64,000 bases of DNA from Voacanga thouarsii (lineage: Eukaryota; Streptophyta; Magnoliopsida; Gentianales; Apocynaceae): the NCBI GenBank assembly GCA_026120185.1, contig JANUWF010001110.1:535001-599000 (forward strand), given 5' to 3'. The position numbers and the translations under genes were made by a program. Within the stretch, counting starts at the first letter, position 1. Every line of letters begins with the position of its first letter. Below, piece after piece: positions 1-52,900 of this stretch. The notes under the pieces were generated by a model. That model searched no databases and had not been told where the DNA came from. It saw nothing but the letters and a program-made list of their open reading frames with translations.

Positions 1-544
1 TCATGATTTCTCAATAATAACTCATTATTTTTCTCTGCAATGAGGAGGGCAGTAATTAAATCTGTAAATTTTGTATACCCCTTTTCTCGATATTGTTGCT
101 GCAGGACAATATTTGAGGCATGAAAGGTGGAGAATGTCTTCTCCAACATATCTTCATCAGTCACTTTTTCTACGCATAATTTTAATTGAGATGTAATTTT
201 ATACATTGCGGAGCTATATTCATTCACGGTTTTAAAATCTTGCAACATCAGGTGCAACCATTCATACCGTGCAGTGGGTAGTACGACCATCTTCAGGTGG
301 TCAAATCTTTCTTTTAAATTTACCCACAGGACATATGGATCTTTTTCGGTAAGATATTCCATTTTCAAATTTTCATCGAGATGACGACGAATTAAAATCA
401 AAGCTTTAGCCTTGTGTTGTGCAGATGCACTATTATTTACTTGAATTCAGCATTTAGATGTATTTCTGCATCGAGAACCCATGACATATAATTTTTTCCA
501 GAAATATCAAGGGTTACAAATTCGAGTTTAGCGAGATTAGCCAT
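1..544 (-). pseudogene. Copia gag polyprotein, N-terminal part (partial)
   Basis: The minus strand from 544 starts MANLAKLEFVTLDISGKNY, the characteristic start of a plant Copia gag (UBN2-type capsid). After one frameshift near base 450 the frame continues as LILIRRHLDENLKMEYL, then LWVNLKERFDHLK and on to the left edge. It would encode the nucleocapsid-type protein that packages retrotransposon RNA in cytoplasmic particles. The ATG at 544 is the natural start because it lies just downstream of the LTR and leader and matches the family start. The frameshift makes this copy inactive as read. The same gag is present but more damaged at 2771-3340. Confidence 0.8.
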
Positions 545-645
545 AGAGATCAATAAATGCGTACCTGTCTTCTGGTTTTGGTAACGACAGAAACTCGTGC
601 TTAGTCTTCTGGTTTTTGTACCGATAGAGACTCGTGCTGATAACG

Positions 646-1014
646 TGTTATAAAATTAGGGTAGTGTTAGAATAAAATCTACACACTACACACTAAGAAA
701 ACTCTAACTATTCTTTGCACAAGAATTTCTCTTCAAACTTCTCTCTTTCTTTCTCTCACAATTCTTTCTCTAATCTTTCTTTCACTAATCTTTCTTTCAC
801 AAAATGATGGTGTCTTACAAGCTTAAAGAATAGCTCTATTTATAGAGTTCTAATTAGTGGAATACATCATGCCATACATCATCTTCCACTAATCTCAATT
901 AGTGGTGTCTCCACTAAATGGTGGACATCCATAAAAATCTTCTATAATAATTCACATAAATCCATAATTAGTGGAGCCTCCACTAATTAATAAAGATTCC
1001 AATAATTAATAACA
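646..1014 (-). repeat. 5' LTR of the left Copia element
   Basis: 369-bp LTR with TG...CA ends on the minus strand. It contains the TATAAATAG box, the paired 'TTAGTGGAG' motifs and the polypurine-rich 3' part also seen at 2333-2671 and 7064-7402. The leader after it (minus strand) reads CGTTATCAGCACGAG, which is not the common initiator-Met primer-binding site TGGTATCAGAGC. Confidence 0.85.
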
Positions 1015-2332
1015 AGTATGGAATTTTTAAGATTATTTTCGATTTAATTAATTAAATTTGGAGAAATATATAGGATTTGATAATTAAAAAGTGGAGGATG
1101 ACTCATAAATAAAGTTACGGTCCATATGTGTGTTAAAGAGAGGGATGATAAGGATAACTTCAGTTATTATGTGCCACATTTTTCATTATAAGATTATATC
1201 TTAGACAATCTAGAATTAAAAAAATTTACTATTAAAAAAATTCATAAATATTTTACAAAAAATAATAAATTATATTGTTAAGATAATAGTAAAACTATTG
1301 AATATTTAATTCATAATTTAGAATGAAGAGATCAAATCTTAAAAGTATTAAAAAAGAAATTAAAAAGAGAAATTATGGTCAAGTCTGTGACAGCAGCCAC
1401 CAGGCCACAACCATTGCCTTCCTACCTTTGGTCGATAGTGCAATTAGTTTTTCTTGATGGATACTTCAGCGATCCATCTGTTGGGTATTTTTTTACTATG
1501 ATGGACTTATCTTGTTTTGGGTCATTTTCACTGCTGTATTTTAATCTCTTTAAAGACTCTGGCTTCTCTGCACTAACATTTTTTTTTTTTTTTGTTTTTG
1601 ATGGGCTTTCTTGGTGGCATTAATCAAGGTATTATAGAACATTATTTGCAATGGGACTTTTTGACAAAGCAGAGATGTGTTTATGAGGGCGAGAGAGGCA
1701 CGGCCCTCCAAAAATTTTTAAAAATTATTTTAAAAAAAATTATAATATTATTCTCCGAAATATATTTTCATGTAACTTGCTTTCTCTAATATCGAGTTAT
1801 TGATTTCATCCTTATAGGAAAACATTTGAATATTTACATCCCTAACAGCTTATTTTTCATTACTGTTAGGAATGTGTCATTAGTTACTATTTGTCAAGTA
1901 ACTTTAACATGATTCTTTTGACATATTGAAGATGGGTTTAGAAGATGCTAATTTGGCAATGTTTGAGGCGTGCATTATTTGAAGTTGGGTCAGGAAAGGA
2001 TTGCAGCAAATCTAGGGATTTACTTGATTTGAGTGATTCTGATGCAGACAACATCGATGATGTTTTTCGATATTCTTTGTTAAAGTTTGTATTAGTGATT
2101 CTAATTGATCGATTCAATAATCACTATCGTTTTGAGAGGAACTTGAATCCATCTATTTCTTCTGCAAAGTGAGTACCTTTCTGGTGAAAAGGTTCATGTT
2201 GTCAAAAAAAATCCTGCTCAATTACAACAATGAGGATTAAAAGGTATTCAATTAAAGTGGTTGGTTCAATAAAAGTCTTCTGTAAATTTGACAAAAAGAA
2301 CACTGGATTATATTCTATTAAAGTCTACTAAG
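1015..2332. other. Host spacer between two inverted Copia copies; holds segment X
   Basis: AT-rich intergenic DNA. Bases about 1060-1620 ('X') are clearly similar, in the same orientation, to 26750-26860 joined to 27530-27890; the shared piece includes CTACCTTTGGTCGATAGTGC. Bases 1690-1800 look like a degraded transposon end (GGCACGGCCCTCC followed by A/T runs). No convincing gene was seen apart from the weak exon-like stretch described separately. Confidence 0.6.
1932..2172 (+). pseudogene. Unrecognised exon-like fragment
   Basis: I do not recognise this. The stretch starting ATGGGTTTAGAAGATGC reads MGLEDANLAMFEACII, then needs a +1 shift to continue as EVGSGKDCSKSRDLLDLSDS and on to ...NLNPSISSAK before a stop at 2170-2172. 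The downstream frame is 75 codons from its own ATG at 1945. Residue composition (acidic and Ser-rich, then hydrophobic) looks protein-like, but no motif identifies a family. It may be a decayed host exon or a fragment of a retroelement ORF. It lies 160 bp upstream of the Copia LTR at 2333. Confidence 0.25.
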
Positions 2333-2671
2333 TGTTATGAATTATTGGAATCTCCATTAATTAGTGGAGGCTCCATTAATTATGGATTTATGTGAATTAT
2401 TAGAGAAGATTTTTATAGATGTCCACCATTTAGTGGAGACACCACTAATTGAGATTAGTGGAAGATGATGTATGCCACGATGTATTCCACTAATTAGAGC
2501 TCTATAAATAGAGATATTCTCTAAACTTGTAAGACACCATCATTTTGTGAAAGAAAGATTAAAGAAAATTGTGAGAGAAAAGAAAGAGAGAAATTCTTGT
2601 GCAAAATAGTTAGAATTTTATTAGTGTGTAGTGTGAAGATTTTATTCTAACACTACCCTAATTTTATAACA
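2333..2671 (+). repeat. 5' LTR of the RKD-bearing Copia
   Basis: 339 bp, TGTTATGAATTATTGG to TTTTATAACA. A TATA box (TCTATAAATAG) lies at 2511-2521. It is followed by leader CGTTATCAGTACGAG; no standard initiator-Met primer-binding site is visible. Confidence 0.9.
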
Positions 2672-2770
2672 CGTTATCAGTACGAGTCTCTGCCGTTATT
2701 AAAGCCAGAAGACAGCACGAGTCTCTACCGTTATTAAAGCCAGAAGACAGGTACGCATTTATTGATCTCT

Positions 2771-3340
2771 ATGGCTGACCTCGCTAAATTTGAATTTGTA
2801 ACCCTTAATATTTCTAAAAAAAAAAAAATTATATGTCATACAGAAATGCATTTAAATGCTAAAAAAAAGGAGATCCATATGTCATGTGGATAAAAAGAAA
2901 GATTTGACCACCTGAAGATGGTCGTACTACCCACTGCACGGTATGAATGGTTGCACCTGAAGTTGCAAGATTGTAAAACCGTGAACTCCGTGATGTATAA
3001 AACTACATCTTAGTTAAAAATTTTGCGGAGAAAAAGTTACTGATGAAGTTATATTAGAGAAGACATTCTCCACTTTTCATACCTCGAATATTGTCCTACA
3101 GTAACAATATCGAGAAAAAGGGTATCCAAAATTAACAGATTTAACATGAGTTATTATTGAGAAATCATGAAGCCAGATGAACTGGCTCAACAGCATTCTC
3201 AGAAGTGAATGCTGTTGGCTCCAGCAGAAGCCATCGTTATAATCGTAGTTGTGGCAGTGGCCGTCGTTATGGTCATGGACACACTCGATATTTCCCTTAT
3301 CATAGAGAAATACTGGCCACCTGAAGTGAAACAGAAAAGA
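2771..3340 (+). pseudogene. Copia gag remnant
   Basis: The ATG at 2771 begins MADLAKFEFVTLNIS, the same start as the left copy at 544. An internal deletion and poly-A run near 2815-2870 and several frameshifts follow. Recognisable pieces continue to about 3340: the minus-strand-homologous gag end ...ELLLRNHE near 3130-3170 and a basic Arg/Gly/His-rich tail at 3200-3340. The end of gag, protease and start of integrase are absent because sequence of a different origin begins at about 3345-3390. Confidence 0.75.
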
Positions 3341-3398
3341 TAATAAGGGAAAAAAATATTTCCATTAATAATAAACATCACATCTTTTATTCATATCA

Positions 3399-4741
3399 CT
3401 AGTGTTCATATGAATTTGAGGATACATGCTTATAGTTGCTCTTTTGTAATTGAGCTGACAAATTTAAGATGAAGGTTTGTAATTGTTCTTTTTCAATATT
3501 TACATTAGAGGAAGACAAACAATTAGTAATTATAGACTTCAGCTCATCTTTTTCGGCATCCTCCTCATTTTCTTTCTCCTTTGAGCCAGCATCGAGACTA
3601 GCAGCAGAATTAGCCGTAAAATTACTACGAAATGAGTCTTGGGATTTTATGATCCCCTTAAGTTTATTATAATTAAATTTCTTATTATATTTGGCCTTGA
3701 AGTATGCTTGTCTCAATTTCTGTGTTTGGTCCTCTAACTGCGTATTAAGACTTTCTTCCACCAACTATTTTTCACATTCCAGTATCGCAATGGCTTCTTT
3801 CAACTTCTTCTCAGCCATATGTCCTCCTTCTTCTTTATTTTGCATCTCTTGTAAATCGAAGTGATATCATCGGTTATTTACTTATAAATCTTTCATAGTT
3901 TCATACTTGCAAATTATAAGTATTTATGAGAGAGAACCTGAACATTCTTGATTATGGTCTCCAAGCTCACCAACTTCCTGTGAGGCCATCGACGAATTCC
4001 TAACTCCCTACATCTTTTTTTGAGACGGGTTATGCCAATATTCAATTCTTTGGCTGCGCTCTTGATTGGTAGGTAAAAGTACTGCAAAATTGTTTCTCTT
4101 GATAGTGTCTGGGAGTTGTTGCCCTTCTTCTCTCTCTGCCTCTTAATCATCTTCTTCTCCCCAGGAATTTTATCTGTAATAATATCTTGAACTTCGATAT
4201 TATGCATTTCATGAGTACTTACTCCGACTTCGTTTCCAAGACTACTCATTATTTCTCCTAGAAAAAGAAAATAATATCAGTAAAGGTAATACCATTCAAA
4301 ATCCATGTTTAAATGTATAATAACCTGGAATCATATTCTGGCTTTGTTCAAAATCCATTAGAGAGTAGAAAGGATCATGCACAAGCATATCCTCATTCAA
4401 ATGAATAGCATCAAGAGGAACAGTATCAAAAGCAGTCTCTTGTAGGGGCAGATCAACTTGGTCCAAAGCAGTATGTTCAAAACTTCCACTGATTTACATA
4501 AAAAACAAACCAAAAGAGAGTTTAATTTCATTATCAAGCACACTAAAAATAAATGGAAGCCCTCAAAGGTATCTCACATGAAATTAGGAGGAAGCGGTTA
4601 GTTTGGAAAGGAAAACATATCAAAATCTTCTGCGTTCGAATTAGGCAGAAGCGGTTGGTTTGGAAAGGAAAATACATCAAAATCTGTTGCAGAAACCGCG
4701 TCAAAATTTGACCATGTCTCAAATGAATTACGAGTCTCCAT
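3399..4741 (-). pseudogene. RWP-RK domain (RKD-type) transcription factor gene with two in-frame stops, antisense inside a Copia element
   Basis: Four exons fit well on the minus strand: 4578-4741, 4325-4488, 3938-4257 and 3399-3845. All introns have GT/AG ends and the joined phases agree (about 364 codons). Exon 3 encodes the RWP-RK domain: LSRETILQYFYLPI, AAKELNIG, LKKRCRELGIRRWPHRK, then SLETIIKNVQ. Exon 4 has the family C-terminal motif LEDQTQKLRQAYFKAKY after a coiled region. RKD proteins are small plant nuclear DNA-binding factors active in egg cells and early embryos. Two stops break the frame: TAA at 4598-4600 (codon 48) and TAG at 3765-3767 (about codon 243). Exon 1 holds a duplicated motif (DFDVFSFPNQPL / DFDMFSFPN-stop-PL), and the neighbouring copy has CAA where this has TAA. 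An AUG in exon 2 could still produce a protein with the RWP-RK domain. The gene could also be edited or differently spliced, but pseudogene is the simplest reading. Confidence 0.85.
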
Positions 4742-5009
4742 ATCTGCTTTGTGATTTTTATTTTTGATGTTTACTAATAACTGATGACTGAAATATATAT
4801 CGATACATATATATATATATATATATATATCTATCTGTATGAGGAAGAAGAAGAGGTAGATGGTAGGTAGAGGGTTGGAGGAGAAGAAAAGACAAGAGAG
4901 GAAGAGGAAAAGTCGGTACCGGGAAGAGTGAAAAAAAAAGGAGATATTTTTCTTGGCATTTCCTGCTTGTCATCATTTTCTTATATTTCTTTTCTTATTC
5001 TCTTGTGAA
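4742..5009 (-). promoter_or_regulatory. Upstream flank of the RKD gene, carried inside the Copia
   Basis: About 260 bp lie between the RKD start codon and the point where Copia pol resumes. It holds an (AT)n microsatellite at about 4808-4831 and a purine-rich (plus strand) stretch at 4840-4930, i.e. a CT-rich leader on the RKD strand. This looks like the 5' UTR and proximal promoter of the captured gene. No specific TATA box can be separated from the AT repeat. Confidence 0.4.
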
Positions 5010-6935
5010 ATCATTATTCCCTAAATTAGGGGGAGAATAGAAACAGTACAAGAAAGATCGTGATTGGACAACATCATTAAATTATCTTAATCCGCATACA
5101 AGCGCGTGTGAACTTGAAGTTCAAAAGATAATTTATTTGTAAAGCATTGTAAATCAAATGCCAGACGCTTTTGTTGACTCTAGAAGAGTAACAAAATCGC
5201 ATATACCAGCTATAAATGCTCCTATTCTAATTGAAGTTCTAACAGAACAAAAGATTTTATATATGGCTGTTGAGCCAAAAGCATGCCAGAAGCATGGCCG
5301 ACCTCTTAGTTCTAAAGATAAAAATCCTCGAAAGAAGAGATGATTAATGGTCCAGATGATCATATTAAAGCAAAGAATGATAAAGACTAAGAGAAAACTT
5401 ATGACAAAGAACCAGACATAAATGAAAGTAACACTGAAATTTCTATCCATTATACCACTTCCGTAAAAATTGGAATCGGATAGAAATAAGTATTGATCAT
5501 ATGTTTGCATATAATATCTCTTGATGTTATATAGGATAATGATGATCCTGAACCAATATCAGTTGATGAATGTCGGCATAGAAAAGATTGGTTGCAATGG
5601 AAAGATGCGATTCAATCGGAGTTAAATGCACTGACACAACGTGAAGTCTTCGGACCTACAGTTTGAACACTAGAAGGTGTAAAACCTATTGGCTACAAAT
5701 GGATATTTGTACGAAAGAGCAATGAAAAGAGTGAAATCGTTCGATATAAAGTGCGATTAGTAGCCCAAGGTTTTTCACAAAGACCAGGTATTGATTATGA
5801 TGAAACTTATTCTCCTATTGTTGATGCTATTACACTCCGATATCTTATCAGTTTGGCAGTACATGAAAAGATAGATATGCGCCTATTAGATGCTGTCACT
5901 ACTTACTTGTATGAAAATTTAGAAAATGATGTTTACATGAAAATCCCCAAAGGATTTCATATGCCAGAAGCATATATACATTATCCTCGTGAAAATTACT
6001 CCATCAAATTGTAGAAATCATTATATGACCTGAAGTCATCTGGGCACATGTGGTTCAATTATCTTAGTGAATATTGATTGAAAGCGAGATTTAAAATGAC
6101 CAGGTATGTCCATGCGTTTTTATTAAGAAATCTGGTTCTAAATTTGTGATATTAGCTATATATGTTGATGATTTTAATCTTATTAGAACTCTTGAAGAGC
6201 TCCAAGAAACAATTGATTATTCGACATCAAGGATGGTCGTAAAAGTATACTTTGCCTTGGTTTACAAATTAAACATTTGGCAAGTAGAACGTTTATTCAA
6301 CATATACAGCAAAAGTTCTAAAAAGATTTGACATAGACAAAGCACATCCATTGAGTATTCCAATGATCGTCCGGTCCTTTCCGACCTTAAGAAGATGTTG
6401 AAGAACTTCTTAGTCCTGAAGTACCATATCTCAGTACAATTGGTGCATTGATGTATCTTACTAACAATACACGACTTGATATTGCCTATGCTGTCAATTT
6501 ATTAGCAAGATTTAGTTCTTCACCAACATGACGACATTGGAATGGAATTAAACAAGTCATTCGATATCTCCAAGCAGCTACTTCTTCAAATTATGCTGAA
6601 ATTACAGCCATTCATGAAGTAAGTAGAGAATGATTCATTATATCCGAGAAAGTTGTGGATTATCATATATCAGAGATATTCCAACTCCTATTTATAAAGA
6701 TAATGCAGCTGGCATAAGCATAATTACGAGGAGGATATATTAAAGGAGATCGGACACAACATAGGTCACCAAACTCCAGAAGAAAGGTGAAATTGATGTG
6801 CTACAAATTCGGTCATGTGACAACCTCGCAGATATTTTCACGAAGACTTTACCGACTGCAACATTTGAAAAGTTGAGATATAAAATCGGTATACGTCGGT
6901 TTAAAGATTTAAAGGAATCATCTCATAAGGGGGAG
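5010..6935 (+). pseudogene. Copia pol remnant (end of integrase, reverse transcriptase, RNase H)
   Basis: Reading resumes as FPKLGGE, then CELEVQKIIYL, then a 61-codon open part from 5158 (MPDAFVDSRRVTKSHIPA...KDKNPRKKR), the linker between integrase and reverse transcriptase. Reverse transcriptase pieces follow: VRLVAQGFSQRPGIDYDETY (5748-5807), the metal-binding motif IYVDDFN near 6160, and RNase H pieces such as STIGALMYLTNNTRLDIAYA near 6430-6490. Several frameshifts and stops separate them. The end of pol is followed by CATAAGGGGGAGTAATAAGC near 6926. It cannot encode active enzymes. Confidence 0.85.
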
Positions 6936-7063
6936 TAATAAGCAGACATATAGAATAGTGTACTATTTTTCCTTTATTAGTTTTTTTTTCCCACTAGGTT
7001 TTTATCTAGTAAGGTTTTAACGAGGCATATTCTTTATGTAATGGATGGACATCCAAGGGGGAG

Positions 7064-7402
7064 TGTTATGAATTATTGGAATTTCCATTAATTTGTGGAG
7101 GCTCCACTAATTATGGATTTATGTGAATTATTAGAGAAGATTTTTATGGATGTCGACCATTTAGTGGAGACACCAATAATTGAGATTAGTGGAAGATGAT
7201 GTATGCCATGATGTATTCCACTAATTAGAGCTCTATAAATAGAGCTATTCTCTAAACTTGTAAGATACCACCATTTTGTGAAAGAAAGATTAGAGAAAAT
7301 TGTGAGAGAAAAGAAAGAGATAAATTCTTGTGCAAAATAGTTAGAATTTTATTAGTGTGTAGTGTGAAGATTTTATTCTAACACTACCCTAATTTTATAA
7401 CA
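7064..7402 (+). repeat. 3' LTR of the RKD-bearing Copia
   Basis: 339 bp, same length as the 5' LTR and about 96% identical by eye. It is preceded by the polypurine tract CCAAGGGGGAG (7053-7063) and followed by the target duplication CTAAG (7403-7407). Confidence 0.92.
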
Positions 7403-7407
7403 CTAAG

Positions 7408-18435: not shown

Positions 18436-21400
18436 TAGCAATGGCAACTGGGCCGACCCGCCTGGGGGCGGGTCGGTCTCGGCCGGTCCCTGGGCCAGAG
18501 GCCCTGGGACCGGATTGGAACGAGTACCTAGGCCCGTGTGGCCTGCGGGCCGGTGCGGGCCGACCCGTGGCTTATTCCTCTTTTTTTCCCCTATTTAACA
18601 TAATTTTTTTAAATTATAAAAAAATCAACTTGAAGTGGTGGGGGGTTTGGCTTGGACCCCTACCTATTTTATTAATTAATAAAATAAAGATTACATAAGA
18701 GGGAGACTTGATGCCTAAACCTCTTAAAAATATTACAATGATTAAAATTTAAAAATATAATAAATATCCTAAAAATAAAATTAAATACATAATATTACTT
18801 ATCCTAAATTCCTAATTACAAAAATACTAAACTAACTACTTGATTCACCCAATTCATCATCTGAGTCATCATCAATAATCCACGAATTAGCCGTCCTATC
18901 TTCGGCTGCAAACCAACTACTACAACACATTAACATCTCCAAAGTTTGAGGAGCCAATCGATATCTTCTTTCATCGATTGTTCGAGCGCTCCCACTGAAG
19001 ATGCTTTCCGATGACACTGTAGAGACTGATGGTGTCAAAAGATCACGTGCCATTTTTGATAAAATGGGGTATTGACTTACATGAGCCTTCCACCAACCAC
19101 AAATATCAAAATGCTGATCTTCATTTTCTACCAATGGCTGCATCTCGTAAATTGCCATCTCGTTGTATGTAGTAATCGATCTTTTTTGACGTTTCATAAT
19201 ACCCTGTGGATTAAATACTGATGAAATTGATGAGGTAGATTTTCGCGGAGGTTGAAAGTGACTACTAGATAATGAAGCTTGCCTACTTAAACTAGGAGAA
19301 CTAGAAGAAGAAGACTCAAACTCATACAAATGATACATGTCAGATAAAGCTTTAGCTGTTTTATCTTTTATGTCTTTTATCATACATTGTTTAAGTATTT
19401 GTGATTCATCAAAATCTAATGTTTCATATAAATATTCAATAATACTATGAAAACCTGGCGTCTTTACTCTAGGATCCATACACAATGCCATACAATATAA
19501 AATAGGAATATCTTCATAATATTTTTTATATTTTTCAAATATACTTCTCATAAAAAAATTATATTGGGGATGATACATATATTCATCAAAAATATGTGCT
19601 ACCTTAGCAAGTGTTGGAAGAATATGATGAGTAGTGGGATGATAAGATCCCGATAAAAGTTCAGTAACTTCTTTGAAAGTAAATAAAAATGTTGAAAGTG
19701 CAGTACAATTTTCAAAATGAGCTTCAGTTAGTGGAGGTTGAAAATTATTACTATTACAAAATTCAATAAGTTGGTTTTGAAAAGGTATAACACTTTTAAA
19801 CATATCTAAAGTTGAGTTCCATCTAATTTTACAATCTAATCTAAATTTTTTTAAAGATACACATTGTTCTCGGCATAATGCCTTAAAATTTTGTTGCCTA
19901 GTTGGAAATGTTTTAATAAATAAAACAACATTTCTAATTATATTAACAATATCATCAATATATTTATATCCTTCTTTAACACATAAATTAAGTATATGAC
20001 AAGCACACCTAGTATGAAATAAAATACCATCTAACATAGGATTCATTGTATTTTTTAAAATTGTTATGGCAGAATCATTATTTGAAGCATTATCTAAAGA
20101 AATAGAACTAATTTTATTTAAAATCCTATATTCATGACATGTTTGAGTAATCATTTTAGCTATACTACTACCTACATAAGGATATTCAAATAATTTAAAA
20201 CAAATAGTTTTTTGTACTAACCAATCATGATCTATCCAATGACATGTAATGCATAAATAAGATTCATTAGTAATTGTAGTCCAACCATCACAAGTAAGAG
20301 CAAATTTCCAATTACAAGAATCAAACATAGCAATTAGATACTCTTTCATTTCTTTATATATCTCTATTATATCATTTTTTAATGTTGTTCTAGGAATTCT
20401 TTTCCATGCTGGTTGACAATTATTTTGCATATATTGTTCATAATGTGGATTTTCTGCAAAATTAAAAGGTAATTTAGTTTGAACAATCATTTTAGCAAAT
20501 GCATTTCTATTTTTTCTATGATCATATTAAAAATTACCAACCATTTGACCTCCTGTAGTACGTATTTGTTGTTGTTTAAGTAAGTTTTCTAACCAATCAT
20601 TATGTGACCTTTTCATATGTCTAACTAATGTTCCCGTCCATCTCCCTTCTTATGTGCATATACCGCTCTACAAATTTTACATGTTGCCCTATCACTATCA
20701 TTATCTTTTTCAAAAAGATTCCAAACCACAAATGTTTTTGCTTTAGTTGTAACATCCGTTATTTCAACATCATCCTCACCTATATTAGATGCGTCGGGAT
20801 TAATTATTGGAGTTGGTTGTGATTGTGAAACACTAACACTAGGCCTACTAGGACCTTCATCTTCATTACCTATTTCATTATTTATTAAATTCAAAGCTGG
20901 ATCTATATTAAAATCAAAATGTGCAGATGATTGGGATGAAGAAAAATGATGATATTGATTTGGATCCATTATTTCTTAAAAAAAAAAACAAGCAATCAAA
21001 ATTCAAATAAAAGTTCAAAAAAAAGTATTAACAAATAATGAAATAAGAGAATTGAAAAATATAAATAACAAATTAATTTAAAAATTAAACAAATAACTAA
21101 AACAAATAAACAACTAATAAAGCTAAAATAAAAGAATGTAACATTAAGAAATTCTAACTTGTTGATGACCAAAATTCAAGAATAACAATACTTTGTTGAG
21201 CACTTGAGCTTTTTACTTCTTGTATCCATTATTCCGCTACTCAACAATCTTCCAAAATATGAAGACTTTCTTGATGAATTGAAAAAGTATTAACACAAAA
21301 ATAAATTCTATTCTAATACTCTTTGTAGAGAAAATGAATAAATTTGAGGATAATGAGAGAAAGATGAATGGAAATAAGAGAGAATTGGAGAGAGTTTGAG

Positions 21401-28691: not shown

Positions 28692-29673
28692 TATTAGGAC
28701 TTATATTGTTGTGACTTTAACAAGGCCCTTGGACATACTGGTGATTTCCTAAGTTCGTTTAAGAGTTAGCATAATTGGCACAGTTTGATGATGTGTGAAT
28801 TTGTGGTGAATTTAGAGATTGATATCTGCAAAAGATTCTAAAAGAAAATATCTAGCAAAGATCTCAAAAATATTTGTAGAAAATTTAGTAAAGGATCTAG
28901 AGATAAATCAAGAAGAGATCTTGTGCTGCAGAAGACAAATTCAAGAAGGAAAGAAATTGCATTGCATTTAGGAAACCTATGAAGAAAGCACGACTTTAGC
29001 AGTTTCCTAATTCAATAAAACTACTATACCTCTGTCATATATACATATAAATACCGACTCAGAAGAAAAGGGGACAATGAGTTTAGAGAGAGAAAATTCT
29101 TCCTTTAGTGAGTTGAGTAAAACATATAGAGTGAGATTCATGCTTACATATTGAGAAGGTTTGATGCAAACAATTGTTGCAATGCTGCTATGATTCTCTG
29201 TTAAGAGTTTGCATTAAAGATTTAAGTTTAATTACTTCAATATTGCTTATTCTTAAGTTGAGGCGTGAATCAAACAAATTTCATAAAAGCGATCACTTCT
29301 CTAGAGAGGACGTTCCTGTTGTTAAACAATGATCATTTGATTTGCTTCAATATTGGTTGATGAGAGATCAATTATGATGATTGAGTTCAACAATGCTCTT
29401 CTACAAGATTGACAGAAAGAGTAATATATTGTGTTCTTATTAGATTCCATTAAGGACACTTGGTGAAAGGAGATAAGTATTACCATTGTAATTTTTGTTA
29501 AAGTTTAATGGATTCTTTTTACTAGTTTTAGACCCACAGATATAGGCTTGTTAACAACTGAACTGCGTTACTAATTTGCTATATTTGTTAGACTCTTTAT
29601 TTTACTATTTATCAAATTAACTTTAATAGGAAGTTTAACAAAATCACAGAAAGTTAGCAATTTAAACCTAACA
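28692..29673 (+). repeat. 5' LTR of the family-A Copia
   Basis: Starts TATTAGGACTTATATTG (the matching 3' LTR start is TGTTAGGACTTATGTTG) and ends TTTAAACCTAACA. About 40 bp longer than the 3' LTR, mostly from one insertion near the end (AACAAAATCACAGAAAGTTAG). Confidence 0.88.
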
Positions 29674-29699
29674 AGTGGTATCAGAGTAGTTCATTATAT

Positions 29700-35706: not shown

Positions 35707-36647
35707 TGTTAGGACTTATGTTGTTGCAACTTTAACAAGACCCTTTGACATACTGGTGGTTTTTAAGTTTGTTTAGGAGTTAGCATTATTGGCATAGTTT
35801 GATGCAGTGTGAATTTGTGGTAAATTTAGAAACTGATAGTCACATAAGATTCTAGAAGAAAATTTAGCAAAGATCTCGAAAATATTTGTAGAAGATATAG
35901 TAGAGGAATTGAAGATAAATCGAGAAGAGAACTTTTTTTGCAAAGACAAATTCAAGAAGAAAAGAAATTATATTGCGTTTAGGAAACTTATAAAAAAAAA
36001 CACGACTTTAACAATTTCCTAATTCAATGAAACCACAATACCTTTGTCATATATACATATATATAGCTAACTGAGAAGAATAGGGGACAATGAGTTCAGA
36101 GAGAGAAAATTGTAAAAGATAGATGGTGAGATTACAAATTGAGAAGGTCTGACACAAATGATTGTTTTGATGCCACTGTAATTCTTTGTTAAAAGTTTGC
36201 GTCGAATATTCAAGTTTAATTACTTTAATATTGCTCATTCTTAAGTTGAAACTTGAATCAAACAAATTTCTTGAAAGCGATTACTTTTTTGAAGATGAGG
36301 TTCATGTTGTCAAATGAAGACTTATCGAGTTGCTGCAACATTAGCTGATGAGAGATTAATTATGATAATTGAGTTCAACAATAGTCTTCTGCAAGTATGA
36401 CAAAAAAAAAAAAAAAACTATATTGCGTTCTTATTAGATTCCACTAGGGACACTTTGTGAATTGAGATAAGTATTGCTATTGTAACTTTTGTTAAATTTT
36501 AGTGAATTTTTTTTACTGGTCGTGGAAACGCAAACGTAGGCTTGTTCACAATCGAATTGTATTACTAATTTACTGTATTTGTTAGACCTTTTATTTTATT
36601 GTTTGTTAAACTAACTTTAACAGGAAGTTGATAATTTAAACCGAACA
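35707..36647 (+). repeat. 3' LTR of the family-A Copia
   Basis: Starts TGTTAGGACTTATGTTG and ends TTTAAACCGAACA. It is followed by CTTTC, matching the 5' flank. Contains a poly-A run at about 36402-36417. Confidence 0.9.
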
Positions 36648-45578: not shown

Positions 45579-45716
45579 GAGTTAACATCTTTAGATTTTA
45601 GCACTTCATAGCACAAATATCATTACCAATCATTCCCAATCAGGCCAATCCATGCACATTTTCAGCTGAATTTCCAAGTATCTTTTATGAACCTTAGAAC
45701 ATTTCATTTTCCTAGG

Positions 45717-48500
45717 ATGGCAGAGACTGCAGTAAGCCTTATACTAAACCAGATCGCACTGCTGCTTCCCAAGGAGGTGGATATATTGCCTAATGTTCGA
45801 GAAGAAATTGAGTATATAAGAGATGAGCTAGAGCGCATCAGGGCTTTCTTTAGAGAGTCGGATACATATGATGATGAGTGTGACTCCAGACAGCATGTTT
45901 GGGTGAAGCAAATATATGATGTTGCTTATAACACTGAAGACGTTCTTGATGAATTCATGCTCTTCTTTGCATGTCATCATGGGCACGGAGTATCCAGCGT
46001 CTTTCACAAGATCCTTTGCTCAATGAAAACCTTCAGAACTCGTCATCACATTGCATCGAGGATACGGAAAATCAAGTCCAGAGTTTCCGATATCACTGAG
46101 GGACGTGAGAGATACTTTTGCAGAAGTATTCCATTAAAACAACGTTCGAGCTCCAAAGCCGTGACCAAGGTGTGGAGCGATCGCCAAGGAGATGCACTTC
46201 TAATAGAAGAAGCCGAGCTGGTGGGCATTGATGAACCAAAGAGGCAGCTGATTGAGTGGATTTTGGATGGCAATCCTAACCGCAAAGTCATTTCAGTGGT
46301 TGGAATGGGTGGCTTAGGCAAAACCACCCTGGTAAAGAGAGTTTATGATGACAAAGACTTCAAAAGGCAATTCCAAAGCCATGCTTGGCTCACGGTATCA
46401 CAGACATACAACATGAAGGAGCTTCTAAAGGACTTGATTTATCAATTGTATGGTGAAATCAGGCAGCGAGTCCCTCAAAGAATGGACCAAATGGACAACA
46501 ATAAGCTGAAAGCAGTGATCAAAGAGTTCCTCCAACAACACAAGTATGTGCTTGTTCTAGATGAAGTTTGGAGTAGTGATGCTTGGGATGCAATCAAATA
46601 TGCATTGCCCAGCAACTATGGCAGCTGTGTCCTTGTCACAACGCGCATATTTGATGTGGCTTCGGCAGCCTCTGGTATGGAACCTTATGGTCACATATAC
46701 AAGATGAAGGCTTTATCTCCAGAAGAATCCTGGACTTTATTTTGTAGAAAAACATTTCAAGGTTGCTGTCCTTCACATCTGAAGATACTTTGCGAAAGTA
46801 TACTAAAAAAATGTGAAGGCCTGCCACTTGCAATTGTTGCAATTAGTGGTGTTTTGGCTTCAAAAGACAAGACAAGAACAGATGAATGGGAGATCATTCA
46901 CCGAAGTCTTCGTGCTGAATTTGAGAGCAACAATAAACTCCGCAGTACAACAAAAATATTACTGCTGAGTTACGATGATCTACCTCACCACCTTAAATTC
47001 TGTTTCTTGTACCTCAGCATTTTCCCTGAGGATCATTTGATTGAAAGGCTGAGATTGATCCGGCTGTGGATTGCAGAAGGATATGTTGATGCAAAAGAAG
47101 GGTTGACTCTAGAAGAAGTTGCAGAGAGTTATCTAAATGAACTCATCAACAGAAGCTTGATTCAAGTGGTAGGGACAACTATTGATGGAAGGGCAAAGAC
47201 ATGCCGTATTCATGATCTTTTGCTTGACATTGTTCTTTCAAAATCAAGGGAACAAAATTTTGCAGCAATAGCCAACCAACAAACCACAGAAGTTCCTGAA
47301 AAAGTCCGGCGTCTGTCAGTTCACAACTCCATTGCACATTTACCATCAAGAAAGTGTTTCTCTCGCCTCCGTTCATTGCTTATGTTTGGAGTAGGAGATC
47401 CTATATCCAAGTCATCCATAGCCAAACTGTTCAAAGGTGGCTCAAGGCTGATGAAAGTTTTAGACTTCAGAGGTACGTCTTTGGTAACAATTCCAGATGA
47501 AGTCTTCAAACTATTCAATCTAAGATATTTGAGCTTCAGGGGAACCAAGGTGCATTTCCTTCCAAACTCCATAGGGAAGCTTCGACATCTAGAAACGTTG
47601 GATCTTAAGGGTACATACATCACTAAACTGCCTTCAGAAATTCAGAATCTCCAGAAGCTTCGCCATCTGTTGGTGTATCGTTACATGAAGGAACTATATG
47701 CCTCCTTTCACTCTATATCTGGTTTCAAATCCACTGCAAAACTTGGAAGTTTGTCCTCCTTGCAGAAGCTTTCTTTCATGGAGTTTGGCGATGATAATGG
47801 CACTGGAATAGGAGAGCTACTCAAGCTGACACAATTGAGAAGGTTGAGCATCCTGAAACTGAGAAGGGATGATGGCAAGGCCTTGTGCTTCTCTCTTGGA
47901 AAGATGAAGAACCTTCTTTCATTGTCAATAACTTCGGTGGGTGAGGACTCGATAATTGATCTTGAAGCTATGTCATCAGCTCCACTATCACTTCAGCGGC
48001 TATATTTAACAGGACCTTTGGCAAGGTTACCTCACTGGATACCTTCTCTTCACAGCCTGGTCCGACTCTCTTTGAGATGGAGCAATCTAAAAGATGATCC
48101 TCTTGGTTCTCTTCAGAATTTGCCCAACTTGCTATATCTCACTCTTCTTCAAGTCTGTCGTGGAGAGGCAATGCAGTTCAACTCTGGCGGGTTTCAAAAA
48201 CTGAAGGTTCTATTATTGGTTAGATTACCAGAAATGAAGTGCATAAGAATAGAAGAAGGTGCATTGCCCCATCTCGAAGAGCTATACATCCGAAACTGTA
48301 AAATGTTGGAGGAGGTGCCTGAAGGCATTGAACATCTGAGCAACCTCAGAGTAGTTGAATTTGGAGATATGACAGACGAATTTGTTACCAGGATAAGACG
48401 CGACCAACAAGGTGAGGATTACTGGAAAATCACGGGCATTCCCAAAGTTTGGGTAGGGTACAAGGAAGATAATCGCTGGACTGGGTACCATGTAGAGTGA
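45717..48500 (+). CDS. CC-NB-LRR disease resistance protein, RPM1-like
   Basis: An intronless frame of 927 residues encoding an intracellular immune receptor. Members of this class detect pathogen effectors or their action on guarded host proteins and trigger cell death. The ATG at 45717 (MAETAVSLIL) is preferred over the in-frame ATG at 45687 because it fits the family start. Coiled-coil (Rx-type) N-terminus at about 1-150 with TEDVLDEF (73-80). The NB-ARC follows: P-loop GMGGLGKTT (196-204), kinase-2 VLVLDEVW (278-285), VLVTTR (305-310), GLPLAI (368-373), FLYLSIFPED (430-439), and RIHD (497-500) in the MHD position. Leucine-rich repeats span about 530-915. No stops or frameshifts, and length is usual for the class. 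Two motifs deviate slightly: LDEVW for LDDVW and IHD for MHD. A Copia LTR begins 130 bp after the stop, so the 3' UTR or poly(A) site may lie in it. Confidence 0.95.
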   Translation: MAETAVSLILNQIALLLPKEVDILPNVREEIEYIRDELERIRAFFRESDTYDDECDSRQHVWVKQIYDVAYNTEDVLDEFMLFFACHHGHGVSSVFHKILCSMKTFRTRHHIASRIRKIKSRVSDITEGRERYFCRSIPLKQRSSSKAVTKVWSDRQGDALLIEEAELVGIDEPKRQLIEWILDGNPNRKVISVVGMGGLGKTTLVKRVYDDKDFKRQFQSHAWLTVSQTYNMKELLKDLIYQLYGEIRQRVPQRMDQMDNNKLKAVIKEFLQQHKYVLVLDEVWSSDAWDAIKYALPSNYGSCVLVTTRIFDVASAASGMEPYGHIYKMKALSPEESWTLFCRKTFQGCCPSHLKILCESILKKCEGLPLAIVAISGVLASKDKTRTDEWEIIHRSLRAEFESNNKLRSTTKILLLSYDDLPHHLKFCFLYLSIFPEDHLIERLRLIRLWIAEGYVDAKEGLTLEEVAESYLNELINRSLIQVVGTTIDGRAKTCRIHDLLLDIVLSKSREQNFAAIANQQTTEVPEKVRRLSVHNSIAHLPSRKCFSRLRSLLMFGVGDPISKSSIAKLFKGGSRLMKVLDFRGTSLVTIPDEVFKLFNLRYLSFRGTKVHFLPNSIGKLRHLETLDLKGTYITKLPSEIQNLQKLRHLLVYRYMKELYASFHSISGFKSTAKLGSLSSLQKLSFMEFGDDNGTGIGELLKLTQLRRLSILKLRRDDGKALCFSLGKMKNLLSLSITSVGEDSIIDLEAMSSAPLSLQRLYLTGPLARLPHWIPSLHSLVRLSLRWSNLKDDPLGSLQNLPNLLYLTLLQVCRGEAMQFNSGGFQKLKVLLLVRLPEMKCIRIEEGALPHLEELYIRNCKMLEEVPEGIEHLSNLRVVEFGDMTDEFVTRIRRDQQGEDYWKITGIPKVWVGYKEDNRWTGYHVE

Positions 48501-48965: not shown

Positions 48966-49049
48966 AATTGGTATTAGAGCCTTAGACTTTCTTGAGGGAC
49001 TTGTGATTGTGAGAAATTTTTTTTTTCGTATTTTTTGCTTTCTTCATCC

Positions 49050-49937
49050 ATGGATTCAGAAACTCTTTTTACTGCACTAGCACCACTAGTTTTCAATGGT
49101 GAAGGTTATCATGTCTGGGCAGCAAGGATAGAGGCTCATCTGGAGGCAAATGATCTCTGGGAAGCAGTGGAGGAGGACTATGAAGTTCCTCAATTACCTA
49201 CAAATCCAACTATGGCGCAGATCAAAAATCACAAAGAGAAGAAATCAAGAAAGTCGAAGGCAAGAGCTACATTATTTGCTACAGTCTCTTCTGAGATCTT
49301 TGTTAGAATTATGACAATGAGATCAGCTTTTGAAGTCTGGAATTTCCTGAAGAAGGAGTATGAAGGAGATGAGAGGATTAAGGGAATGAAAATTCTGAAC
49401 CTGATCAGGGAGTTCGAGCTTCAAAAGATGAAGGATTCTGAGACAGTGAAGGAGTACTCTGACAGATTACTTGGAATTGCAAACAAAGTAAGGTTACTTG
49501 GTTCTGAATTTTCTGATTCCAGATTAGTTCAAAAAATCCTTGTAACTGTTCCTGAAAGGTTTGAAGCTACCATTTCCTCGCTGGAAAACACTAAAGATCT
49601 GTCAAAGATTAGTTTGGCAGAATTGATGCATGCTTTACAGGCATAAGAACAGAGAAGGCTCATGAGGTCTGAAGGGTTTGTTGAAGGTGCATTAGCTACA
49701 AGAGCTCAGTCCAATCAAGGAGGAAAATGGAAAAAGAATGAGAAGAACAAGAAGGGAAACTCAGGTTTTGATTCTCCTAATACTATTAAGGGAACAAAAT
49801 CTAATTTTCCTCCTTGTAAACATTGTGGAAGAAAGGGTTATCCACCCTCCAAATACTGGAGAAAGCCAGACCAGCAGTGTGAAAAGTGTCAGAAAATGGG
49901 ACATAATCAAAGAATTTGCAAAAGTAACACTCAATAA
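49050..49937 (+). pseudogene. Copia gag with zinc knuckles, two stops
   Basis: The ATG at 49050 starts MDSETLFTALAPLVFNGEGY. The capsid domain (UBN2 type) is open for 198 residues to TAA at 49644-49646 (after MHALQA), then continues in frame as EQRRLMRSEGF and reaches CKHCGRKGYPPSKYW and CEKCQKMGHNQRIC, the zinc knuckle, before TAA at 49935-49937. Both stops fit a Gln codon changed by one C-to-T transition. The product would coat the element's RNA. Start choice: first ATG after the primer-binding site; the preceding TTG is not credible. Confidence 0.88.
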
Positions 49938-49943
49938 AAGACT

Positions 49944-52900
49944 ATGACACAAGTGAATTTGCATCAAAAGAATGTTGCTCAGATTGCTGATCAAGAAGAG
50001 GAGGAGCAACTCTTTGTAGCTTTTTGTTTTGCGACCTGTCATTCAAGTGAGAAGTGGCTCATTGATAGTGCTTGTACCAACCATATGACCTTTGATTGTG
50101 ATCTTTTCAAGGAATTAGACACTTCTGTAGCTTCCAAAGTGAAGATTGGCAATGGAGAGTACATTGTAGTCAAGGGAAAAAGCATAGTAGCAATTGAAAG
50201 CACTTCAGGTACAAAGCTTATCAAAGATGTATTATTTGTACCTAATATTAGTCAAAATTTGTTGAGTGTTGGCCAGTTGATTCAGAAAGGTTTCAAAGTT
50301 CTCTTTGAAACAAATCAGTGTTTAATCAAGGATGCAAAAGGCCATGATGTATTCAAAGTAAAAATGAAAGGGAAAAGCTTTACACTTGATCCATTAGAGG
50401 TGGAGCAAGTAGCACTCTCTGCAGCAAAAGTTAATGCAGAAATTTAGCACAAGAGACTTGGCCATTTCAATCATATAGCTGTGGTGAATTTGCAGAGAAA
50501 GGAATTGGTTCAAGGTCTCCCTTATTTTGAAACTGAAATTCCAGATTGTAAAGCCTGTCAACAAGGAAAGCAATCAAGACTTTCCTTCAAGCAAGCAACT
50601 TGGGGAGCTACTGAAAAGTTACAATTGATACACACTAATTTGGCTGGACCTCACAAAACTCCATCTCTGAATGGGAGTAGGTATTTCCTTATCTTCATTG
50701 ATAACTATTCCAAAATGTGTTAGATCTATTTTCTTAGATTCAAGTCAGAAGTTGCTGGTGTTTTTTGAAAATTCAAGCAATGGATTGAAACACAAAGTGG
50801 TCACAAAATCCAAACCTTGAGATCTGAGAATGGGAAGGAGTACACCTCCAATCAGTTTAATTTTTTCTGTGAAGAAGCTGGGATTGAACATAAACTCACT
50901 GCTCCATACACTCCACAACAAAATGGAGTCAGTGAGAGGAAAAATCGTACCATAATGGAGATGGCTAGATGTTTGATGTTTGAGAAGAATTTGCCAAGGG
51001 AATATTGGGCAGAAGCAGCACACACTGCAGTCTTCCTTCTCAACAGGCTTCCTACAAAAGCTGTAGCAGAAAAAACTCCATATGAAGTCTGGTATGGTTT
51101 TAAACCTTCTTTGAAAAATCTCAAAGTATTTGGATGCTTGTGTTTTGTTTATGTTCCTCAAATCAAAAGGGATAAACTGGATAAAAAGGCAGAAGCAGGG
51201 ATCTTTGTTGTTTATAGCACAATCTCTAAAGCCTACAGAATTTTCCAACCAAACACTAAGAAAATCTTAATAAGCAGAGATGTGCATTTCATGGAGAATA
51301 ATGAGTGGGATTGGGAAGGAAAGTCATTAGCTTTGGTTCCTGAACAAGTTCCAAAATTACAGCTCAAAGAAGATGAGTTGCTTGATGACATTCCTATTAG
51401 AGGTATGAGATCACTTTCTGATATCTATTAGAGATGCAATGTGGCTATACTTGAATCTACAGATTTTTGGGAAGCTAAGAAGGATCCAAAATGGATTACT
51501 ACAATGAAGGAAGAGCTCAAGATGATTGAAAAAAATCAGACTTGGAAGTTGGTGAAAAGACCTGCAAGTAGAAAAGTGGTTGGAGTAAAGTGGGTATTTA
51601 GAACCAAGTTGAATCCTGATGACTCAATCGACAAGCATAAGGCTAGGCTCATTGTGAAAGGGTATGCTCAGATTTTTGGTGTTGATTTTTCTGACATTTT
51701 TGCTCCTGTTGCAAGACTAGAAACAATCAGGTTGTTGCTTGCAATAGCTACACAAAAAGGTTGGAAAGTCTATCAACTTGATGTTAAATTAGCCTTCCTG
51801 AATGGTTTCTTGGAAGAGGAGATTTATGTTGAGCAACTGCGAAAGGCCAAGAAGATGATGTATACTTGCTCAAAAAGGCCTTGTATGGCTTGAAACAAGC
51901 TCCAAGAACCTTGTATAGCAGAATTGATGAGCACTTGATGCAACTGGGCTTTAGAAAAGTCTTAGTGAAGCTACCCTCTACATCAAAGGTAATGAAATCA
52001 ATTTTGTAGTTGTTTCTTTGTATATGGATGATTCGCTGGTTACAGGAAGCAATGAAGAACTTGTGAGAAAGTTCAAAGAATATATGAAGCAAACCTTTGA
52101 GATGACAAATTTAGGAAAGATGGCTTACTTCCTAGGAATGGAAATAAAGCAGAACAATGGGGAAGTGTTTATTTGTCAAAGGAAGTATGCTAAGGAGATT
52201 CTGAAAAAAATTCAAAATGGATGCATGCAAGAGTGTAGATACTCCAATGTGTCAAAACCAGAAGTTGAGTAAGGAAGATGAAGTTGAGAAGGTCGATGAA
52301 ACATTCTACAGAAGTCTAGTAGGTTGCCTGATGTATCTAACAGCTACAAGGCCTGATATCTTATACTCTGTAAGTCTATTATCCAGATTCATAAATTGTG
52401 CAACTGAAACACATTTTTCAGCTGCTAAAAGTGTCCTTAGATATGTGAGAAGGACACTAGATTATGGAATTAGATTTTGTGCAAATCAAGATTGTGTTCT
52501 GCAGGGCTATTCTGACAGTGATTTGGGAGGTTCACCCGATGATATGAAAAGTACTTCAGGTTATTATTTTAAGTTTGGTTTAGGAGTGTTTTCTTGGTGT
52601 TCCAAGAAGCAGAATACAGTGGCACAATCTACAGTAGAAGCTGAATTTATTGCAGCTACTGTTGCTGCAAATCAGGCTTTGTGGTTAAGAAAAGTGTTAG
52701 TGGATTTGAATTTGAAGCAAGAAGGATGCACAGAAGTGTTTGTTGATAATTAGGCTGCAATTGCTATCTCTCATAATCCTATTTTTCATGAGAAAACTAA
52801 GTACTTCAATATCAAGTTATTTTTCTTAGAGAAGTGCAGAAGGAAGGCTTAGTTGGTTTGAAATATTGCAAATATGATCTTCAACTAGCTGACATGTTTA

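What the first reader, a model, noticed from the sequence alone, without database searches (positions are those of the whole stretch)
3345..5009. Intron-containing RKD (RWP-RK) gene captured antisense inside a Copia retrotransposon
A gene of the egg-cell/embryo RKD class with four exons and intact splice sites sits between broken gag and pol of a Copia element that has CTAAG on both sides and LTRs about 96% identical. Because the gene is antisense to the element, its introns would not be spliced from genomic retroelement RNA, so an intron-bearing passenger could be copied and moved. The start region and proximal promoter are included. This looks like transduplication of a developmental regulator. 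Two stops suggest a pseudogene, but Copia-driven antisense RNA could affect the parent RKD genes.
Basis: partly seen in the sequence, partly recalled or inferred. Interest (0 to 1): 0.88.

Follow-up and report, generated by a model that had tools for sequence, protein, structure and literature searches.

The report
Retrotransposon spreading antisense intron-bearing RKD gene
A Copia jumping element in this plant carries, backwards and with its introns, a gene of the RKD type (egg-cell and embryo regulators in other plants), and the same gene-element junction is found at about 2,200 places in the genome, likely because the backwards orientation keeps the introns from being spliced out of the element's RNA.

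Summary
Window 2333-7402 is a Copia element (339-bp LTRs, 96.5% identical; CTAAG on both sides; two element-free paralogous sites in the window). Between broken gag and pol it carries a four-exon RKD (RWP-RK) gene on the opposite strand, about 3346-5008. In the window's own genome (1.35 Gb) the gag/RKD junction 30-mer occurs at 2,235 places (at most 2 mismatches; control 0). All 20 further copies fetched have LTR-gag-antisense RKD-pol-LTR, all three introns and the same junctions; 12 of 21 copies, window included, have exact 5-bp target duplications. The neighbouring copy of the same Copia lacks RKD and keeps the 1.7 kb (zinc knuckle to integrase) that RKD replaced. Most likely one capture was followed by retrotransposition about 2,000 times, with integrase supplied in trans. 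A separate host RKD gene exists. RKD variation among copies looks neutral; 6 of 21 copies, picked by similarity, keep an unbroken frame. How the gene was captured, and any effect on host RKD, are not shown. Host-gene capture by LTR retrotransposons is known; an antisense intron-bearing regulator at this copy number I did not find described.

The parts
2328..2332 (.). Target-site duplication CTAAG, left
   Evidence: single copy in the aligned empty sites
2333..2671 (+). 5' LTR, 339 bp
   Evidence: 12 differences to the 3' LTR, K2P 0.036
2771..3345 (+). Broken Copia gag remnant (deletions, frameshifts and stops against the neighbour copy)
   Evidence: joins RKD between about 3345 and 3354
3346..5008 (-). 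Captured RKD block, antisense to the element: about 45-53 bp past the stop codon, four exons, three introns, 267 bp upstream of the ATG; stands where the RKD-free neighbour has 1,706 bp from zinc knuckle to integrase
   Evidence: same junctions in 21 of 21 copies; no integrase-core match in any of the 21
4578..4741 (-). RKD exon 1 (ATG at 4741-4739; 57-bp tandem unit; in-frame stop 4600-4598)
4325..4488 (-). RKD exon 2
3938..4257 (-). RKD exon 3 with the RWP-RK domain
3399..3845 (-). RKD exon 4 (in-frame stop 3767-3765; terminal stop 3401-3399)
3846..3937 (-). RKD intron 3; the acceptor kept by 17 of 21 copies and by the host gene is lost here, an in-frame one 3 nt downstream remains
4742..5008 (-). 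RKD upstream sequence (5' UTR and probably proximal promoter); RKD loci L042 and L044 outside this Copia share it to about 4931 and 4954
5009..6914 (+). Broken pol remnant (integrase C-terminal end, reverse transcriptase, RNase H); 13 stops and 10 frameshifts in 633 codons aligned to P0245 (10 and 7 in 508 to P0241)
   Evidence: one stop shared by 19 of 21 copies
7064..7402 (+). 3' LTR, 339 bp, preceded by a purine-rich tract
7403..7407 (.). Target-site duplication CTAAG, right
1..1014 (-). LTR and gag end of the neighbouring RKD-free member of the same Copia family (continues left as L045)
29151..29674 (+). Paralogous repeat showing the empty target site
36181..36639 (+). Second paralogous repeat showing the empty target site

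Best explanation
The window holds one member of a Copia family, with about 2,200 gag/RKD junction sites in this genome, in which 1.7 kb of gag-pol is replaced by an antisense four-exon RKD gene, and the gene likely kept its introns through reverse transcription because the element's RNA reads it backwards. Shown here: the same two junctions in all 21 copies examined, LTR-to-LTR insertion with 5-bp target duplications of eleven different sequences in 12 of them, no integrase core in any of the 21, and an RKD-free relative that has it. Following from established retrotransposon biology: copies without integrase need it supplied in trans, most likely by such RKD-free relatives. Inferred: capture happened once, when the donor RKD still had an open frame, probably by template switching of reverse transcriptase between Copia RNA and an antisense (read-through) RNA over an RKD gene. 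After capture the gene looks like a passenger: its codon positions vary equally among the copies. Most copies examined, the window's included, have a broken RKD frame. The confidence given is for the family and its spread by retrotransposition; for the template-switching step alone it is about 0.5.
For: Genome search: the window itself and 39 further places, all 40 scored candidates of 3,276 in the first look, match the block over its whole length or all but at most 5 bases, the 39 at 94-97%. Junction 30-mer 2,235 sites, reversed control 0. 20 of 20 further copies have LTR-gag-RKD(antisense)-pol-LTR. Of 83 listed junction sites typed (100 were listed), 60 have a listed RKD motif nearby; 60 of 60 are antisense, 581-676 bp apart. 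Exact 5-bp duplications in 12 of 21 copies; LTR K2P 0.009-0.055, some on partial LTRs. Introns present in 21 of 21, and in 6 of 6 further copies, one of them shortened. The RKD-free neighbour L045 keeps the replaced 1,706 bp with an in-frame match to relatives' integrase; a 30-mer of that region occurs at 2,715 sites; no integrase-core match in 21 of 21 RKD-bearing copies. Separate host RKD gene L042 with four exons; four element copies group together (100) and beside it (90). Pi at codon positions 1/2/3: 0.034/0.032/0.033.
Against: No RNA was examined, so protection of introns by orientation is inferred. The immediate parent was not found: L042 is only about 79-91% identical, exon piece by exon piece. 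Nine of 21 copies show no exact target duplication. Twelve other RKD copies (L029-L040) sit in other repeats and lack intron 3, so RKD is amplified here by more than one route. The capture step leaves no unique signature. The 21 copies were the best matches by RKD similarity, which biases the intact-frame count upward. The right-junction count did not complete.
Confidence: 0.9

Rival explanations
1. Capture was a DNA event: a segment of an RKD locus was copied into a resident Copia during double-strand break repair, and that copy became the founder that was then retrotransposed in trans.
For: The block has introns and upstream DNA, no poly(A), no terminal repeats or target duplication of its own, and stands in place of 1.7 kb of Copia, all compatible with patch repair.
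Against: Nothing specific; template switching on antisense RNA explains the same facts.
Confidence: 0.38
2. The RKD frame was kept by selection: the element gains from encoding a working RKD protein or from its upstream sequence.
For: Pol is far more broken than RKD in the window (23 lesions in 633 codons against 2 in 364); 6 of 21 copies have an unbroken frame; the RKD frame is open in some copies although at 9 codons of 52 in the RWP-RK domain no copy of the 21 has the host gene's codon and the commonest one there codes another amino acid.
Against: Equal diversity at the three codon positions; synonymous, replacement and stop variants near or, for stops among singletons, above random expectation; copies were picked by RKD similarity; of 6 copies picked by the junction instead, 1 has neither stop nor exon indel.
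Confidence: 0.08
3. RKD entered this one Copia after its insertion (patch repair or a DNA transposon at this locus only).
For: From the window alone it could not be excluded.
Against: 2,235 sites with the same junction and 20 of 20 further copies with the same composite structure.
Confidence: 0.01
4. Copies spread by segmental or satellite-like DNA duplication, or are assembly duplicates.
For: At least one tandem RKD array exists (C198); 9 of 21 copies show no exact target duplication.
Against: Different target duplications in 12 of 21 copies (AATAC twice) and different LTR divergences.
Confidence: 0.02

Closest known systems
Rider / SUN in tomato (LTR-retrotransposon transduction of a host gene; passages of review PMC13317346)
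   Same: An LTR element (Copia type, recalled) carries a host developmental gene
   Different: One transduced locus with a known phenotype; here an internal replacement, antisense, at about 2,200 sites, no phenotype known
Bs1 of maize (passages of PMC13317346)
   Same: Host gene pieces sit inside an LTR element
   Different: Bs1 carries segments of three genes; here one whole four-exon gene with upstream DNA, antisense
Retroduplicated NLR genes in pepper (PMC5664825, passages)
   Same: LTR elements, about 72% of them non-autonomous, amplify a host gene family; some of the copies do contain introns, which the authors put down to intron retention or exon skipping
   Different: Intron loss is given there as a distinctive feature, and 86-123 NLRs per genome lie inside LTR elements; here all three introns are kept, antisense, and one capture accounts for about 2,200 sites
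LTR-captured genes of rice and sorghum (PMC3726574, passages)
   Same: Captured genes re-amplified by retrotransposition, many of them pseudogenes
   Different: 672 and 1,343 captured genes per genome; its main text has no occurrence of intron, antisense or orientation
CitRKD1 and its MITE in citrus (PMC6090715, passages)
   Same: A transposable element bears on an RKD gene
   Different: There a MITE inserted upstream goes with higher expression; here the gene itself is carried by an element

Membership tests
Copia (Ty1) LTR retrotransposon | Two LTRs with TG..CA ends and short target duplication | tested here: met
   12 of 21 copies with exact duplication
Copia (Ty1) LTR retrotransposon | Copia-type reverse transcriptase with integrase upstream of it | tested here: met
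   RVT_2 112 bits; integrase upstream in the RKD-free neighbour L045, missing in the window copy
RKD subfamily of RWP-RK proteins | RWP-RK domain and closest relatives named RKD | tested here: met
   all 120 listed hits of 273 carry the domain, many are named RKD
RKD subfamily of RWP-RK proteins | No NLP-type GAF/PB1 region (definition recalled) | tested here: met
   Pfam finds RWP-RK alone in the spliced window protein and in the host model at E up to 0.01
Classical retrogene / retroduplicated gene in an LTR element | Introns lost relative to parent | tested here: not met
   three introns in 21 of 21 copies and 6 of 6, one shortened
Classical retrogene / retroduplicated gene in an LTR element | 3' poly(A) tract | tested here: not met
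   none between the RKD stop codon and the junction
Host gene carried inside an LTR retrotransposon | Gene lies between LTRs with target duplication and a related gene elsewhere | tested here: met
   immediate parent not identified
Non-autonomous element moved in trans | Lacks enzymes that relatives of the same family have | tested here: met
   no integrase core in 21 of 21; the neighbour keeps it and its 30-mer has 2,715 sites; movement in trans itself was not observed
Pack-type DNA transposon or Helitron passenger | Own terminal repeats or target duplication at block ends | tested here: not met
   longest direct match 8, inverted 9; shuffles for direct matches give mean 7.8, maximum 13; Helitron end motifs not tested

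The most novel reading that the evidence does not exclude
An egg-cell/embryo regulator has become a standing part of a retrotransposon: about 2,200 mobile copies, each with RKD upstream sequence, introns and, in some, an open frame, give the element expression in the egg or early embryo and flood the host with antisense RKD RNA and small RNAs that tune its own RKD genes.
Probability: 0.12. Interest if true: 0.93.

Novelty: new variant of a known kind. Interest (0 to 1): 0.8.

Why it matters
Intron loss is one mark by which genes amplified by LTR elements are recognised (PMC5664825, whose authors left out multi-exon NLRs inside LTR elements that had no parental sequence). An antisense passenger that keeps its introns can escape such a search. 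This family indicates that one can be amplified about 2,000-fold, carrying a whole developmental gene with its upstream sequence. It also supplies a natural set of RKD copies of graded age in a genome with a host RKD gene, so that silencing, antisense regulation and gene birth from a mobile regulator can be tested in one place.

Tried and rejected
Rejected: RKD joined the element after its insertion. RKD brought in by a DNA transposon: no own ends seen. Purifying selection on RKD among copies: not seen; the NG86 ratio of 0.58 between copies over 153 pairs I read as transition bias because codon positions vary equally, and the 0.55-0.67 against the host gene is then no evidence of constraint either. 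RKD more alike than pol between copies (0.031 against 0.054): I put this down to choosing copies by RKD similarity; six copies chosen by the junction are indeed further from the window (mean identity 0.954, against 0.967), but this was not tested further. The window's excess of pol over RKD lesions (p 0.0013 or 0.0036 by reference) is real for this copy but not proof of selection.

Led nowhere: viral-contig scan (no relative); tRNA and Rfam scans (none); Pfam on the three gag pieces (none); the right-junction count (all unanswered). Host species not identified: the NLR's nearest relative with a named host by identity is Nyssa (61%), the quick RKD tree groups the host gene with Catharanthus (99). 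The careful tree did not finish; only quick trees were used. L044, fetched as a possible host gene, gave no open model.

Full report
What is in the window. A Copia element lies at 2333-7402 with two 339-bp LTRs (12 differences, K2P 0.036), TG...ATAACA ends and CTAAG on both sides. Two paralogous repeats in the window (29151-29674 and 36181-36639, about 66% identical) span the joined flanks without the element and have the target once, so the unit inserted from LTR to LTR. On the minus strand between gag and pol lies a four-exon gene with an RWP-RK domain; its exons chain in phase over 364 codons with two in-frame stops. The protein search returned 273 proteins at E up to 0.001, the best 43% identical over 90%; all 120 listed carry RWP-RK and many are named RKD.

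The decisive result came when the own-genome search answered: the block is not unique. The window and 39 further places, all 40 candidates scored out of 3,276 in the first look, match it over its whole length or all but at most five bases, the 39 at 94-97%. A 30-mer across the gag/RKD junction occurs at 1,101 + 1,134 = 2,235 places with at most two mismatches, reversed control 0. A 30-mer of the RWP-RK exon occurs at 1,270 + 1,254 = 2,524 places; that count can include RKD genes outside the element, since L042 differs from it at one base. Of the 100 junction sites listed I checked 83; 60 have a listed RKD motif nearby, and in 60 of 60 it lies on the opposite strand, on the RKD side, 581-676 bp away.

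I fetched 20 further copies (L009-L028). All 20 have LTR, gag, antisense RKD, pol and LTR, although L011 and L028 have damaged 5' LTRs, and none of the 21 with the window matches a relative's integrase core. Of the 21, 12 have exact 5-bp target duplications at TG..CA ends, eleven different sequences (AATAC twice); 9 do not. LTR K2P runs from 0.009 to 0.055, in a few copies on partial LTRs. With the rate used for pepper LTRs (1.3e-8 per site and year, PMC5664825, passage) this would be about 0.3-2.1 million years, 1.4 for the window; the rate is borrowed and the host unknown. Both junctions are the same in all 21 apart from scattered point changes, which points to one capture.

What RKD replaced. 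The copy next to the window on the left (window 1-1014 plus L045) is the same Copia without RKD. Between the points where the two copies stop and start matching it has 1,706 bp where the window has 1,663 bp with RKD, and this stretch matches relatives' zinc knuckle, protease and integrase regions, the integrase part in one frame. A 30-mer from its integrase region occurs at 1,313 + 1,402 = 2,715 places, so RKD-bearing and integrase-bearing forms are of similar abundance, though this 30-mer may also count related families. Without integrase, RKD-bearing copies need it in trans (established retrotransposon biology; not observed here).

State of the gene. Intron sequence is present in 21 of 21 copies; 17 of 21 have GT/AG at all three introns by the window's boundaries; 20 of 21 have the ATG; 18 of 21 have no exon indel against the window; 6 of 21 have no stop and no indel (L011, L012, L014, L020, L024, L027), two of them (L020, L027) without the usual intron-3 acceptor. 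These copies were the best matches by RKD similarity. The window, L015, L020 and L027 lack the intron-3 acceptor that the other 17 copies and the host gene have; an in-frame one three bases on remains.

Selection. Nucleotide diversity is 0.034, 0.032 and 0.033 at codon positions 1, 2 and 3, and 0.021 in introns; singletons and shared variants fall into synonymous and replacement classes about as expected for random change, stops being above expectation among singletons (14 of 191) and absent among 20 variants with four or more carriers. RKD therefore looks like a neutral passenger over the life of these copies. The window's pol carries 23 stops and frameshifts in 633 codons (17 in 508 against another reference) against 2 in 364 for RKD. 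One pol stop is shared by 19 of 21 copies, another, at a frameshift point, by 21 of 21, two by 10: pol was probably already broken in the founder while RKD was open.

Origin. A host RKD gene at L042 (contig C591) has four exons, canonical splice sites and an open model of 297 codons, an AP2-domain frame about 3 kb away, and no part of this Copia within the 7 kb fetched. It matches the captured gene at about 79-91% by exon piece and shares upstream DNA to about window 4931. In a quick tree four element copies form one group (support 100) beside L042 (90), on a stem of 0.47 against 0.20 for L042. L042 is a relative, not the shown parent. The long stem could be fast change in the donor gene or in the element; I cannot tell which. 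The window's RWP-RK domain differs from P0003's at 10 of 52 residues; of 119 other full-length domains none differs at more than 9.

Mechanism. Shown: shared junctions, replacement of 1.7 kb, antisense orientation, introns kept, many copies with LTRs and, in 12 of 21, target duplications. Inferred: introns survived because splicing signals are on the other strand of the element RNA; integrase came from RKD-free relatives. Capture itself is open between template switching onto antisense RNA and DNA patch repair in a donor element.

Comparison with the literature. Seen as outline, abstract and passages: PMC13317346 (transduction, Rider/SUN, Bs1, abnormal template switching). Seen as passages: PMC3726574, PMC6090715 (there antisense over-expression of CitRKD1 abolished somatic embryogenesis, which shows that antisense RKD RNA can act in principle) and PMC5664825 (it also reports retroduplicated NLRs that contain introns, explained by intron retention or exon skipping, so kept introns as such are not new). 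My searches for RKD or RWP-RK with retrotransposon, Copia or transposable element and for intron-bearing or antisense capture and retroduplication listed no paper whose title or abstract start describes this; some lists were capped (12 of 788, 8 of 24), and apart from the four papers named I read none of them.

Noticed in passing
L029-L040 (contigs C817, C784, C958 and others): Twelve further RKD copies, about 76-86% like the window's, keep introns 1 and 2 where these are covered but lack intron 3; 10 of 12 have exactly 3 nt left between exons 3 and 4. Several share 2-2.8 kb of flanking repeat and show no part of this Copia within 1.5 kb; in L041 (around L030) a different Copia lies on the same strand as RKD. 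A second RKD-amplifying repeat is likely.
   Followed up: partly
G000 C198:1601242-1604353: Six exact RKD-motif hits spaced 616-617 bp apart on one strand beside a gag/RKD junction: probably a tandem array inside one element.
   Followed up: no
window 4582-4690 and L046, L050, L051: A 57-bp (19-codon) unit in RKD exon 1 is tandem (two copies in the window) and appears longer by about 3, 2 and 1 units in three of six sampled copies.
   Followed up: partly
window 45687-48500: Open reading frame for a CC-NBS-LRR protein of 937 aa (Rx_N, NB-ARC, LRR); nearest relative with a named host by identity Nyssa sinensis at 61%.
   Followed up: no
window 48996-52753: A second, different Copia, in broken frames, directly downstream of the NLR.
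   Followed up: no
window 18832-20526: Open hAT transposase frame of 552-564 aa on the minus strand.
   Followed up: no
P0111 (Tanacetum coccineum, 594 aa): A gene model named CCHC-type zinc finger that begins like a Copia gag (my reading) and ends as an RKD; may be a fused model or another RKD-element contact.
   Followed up: no
window 2672-3175 against the neighbour copy: Internal sequence differs twice as much (K2P 0.128) as the LTRs (0.053-0.063) between the two neighbouring copies; unexplained, perhaps a mosaic origin of the RKD form.
   Followed up: partly
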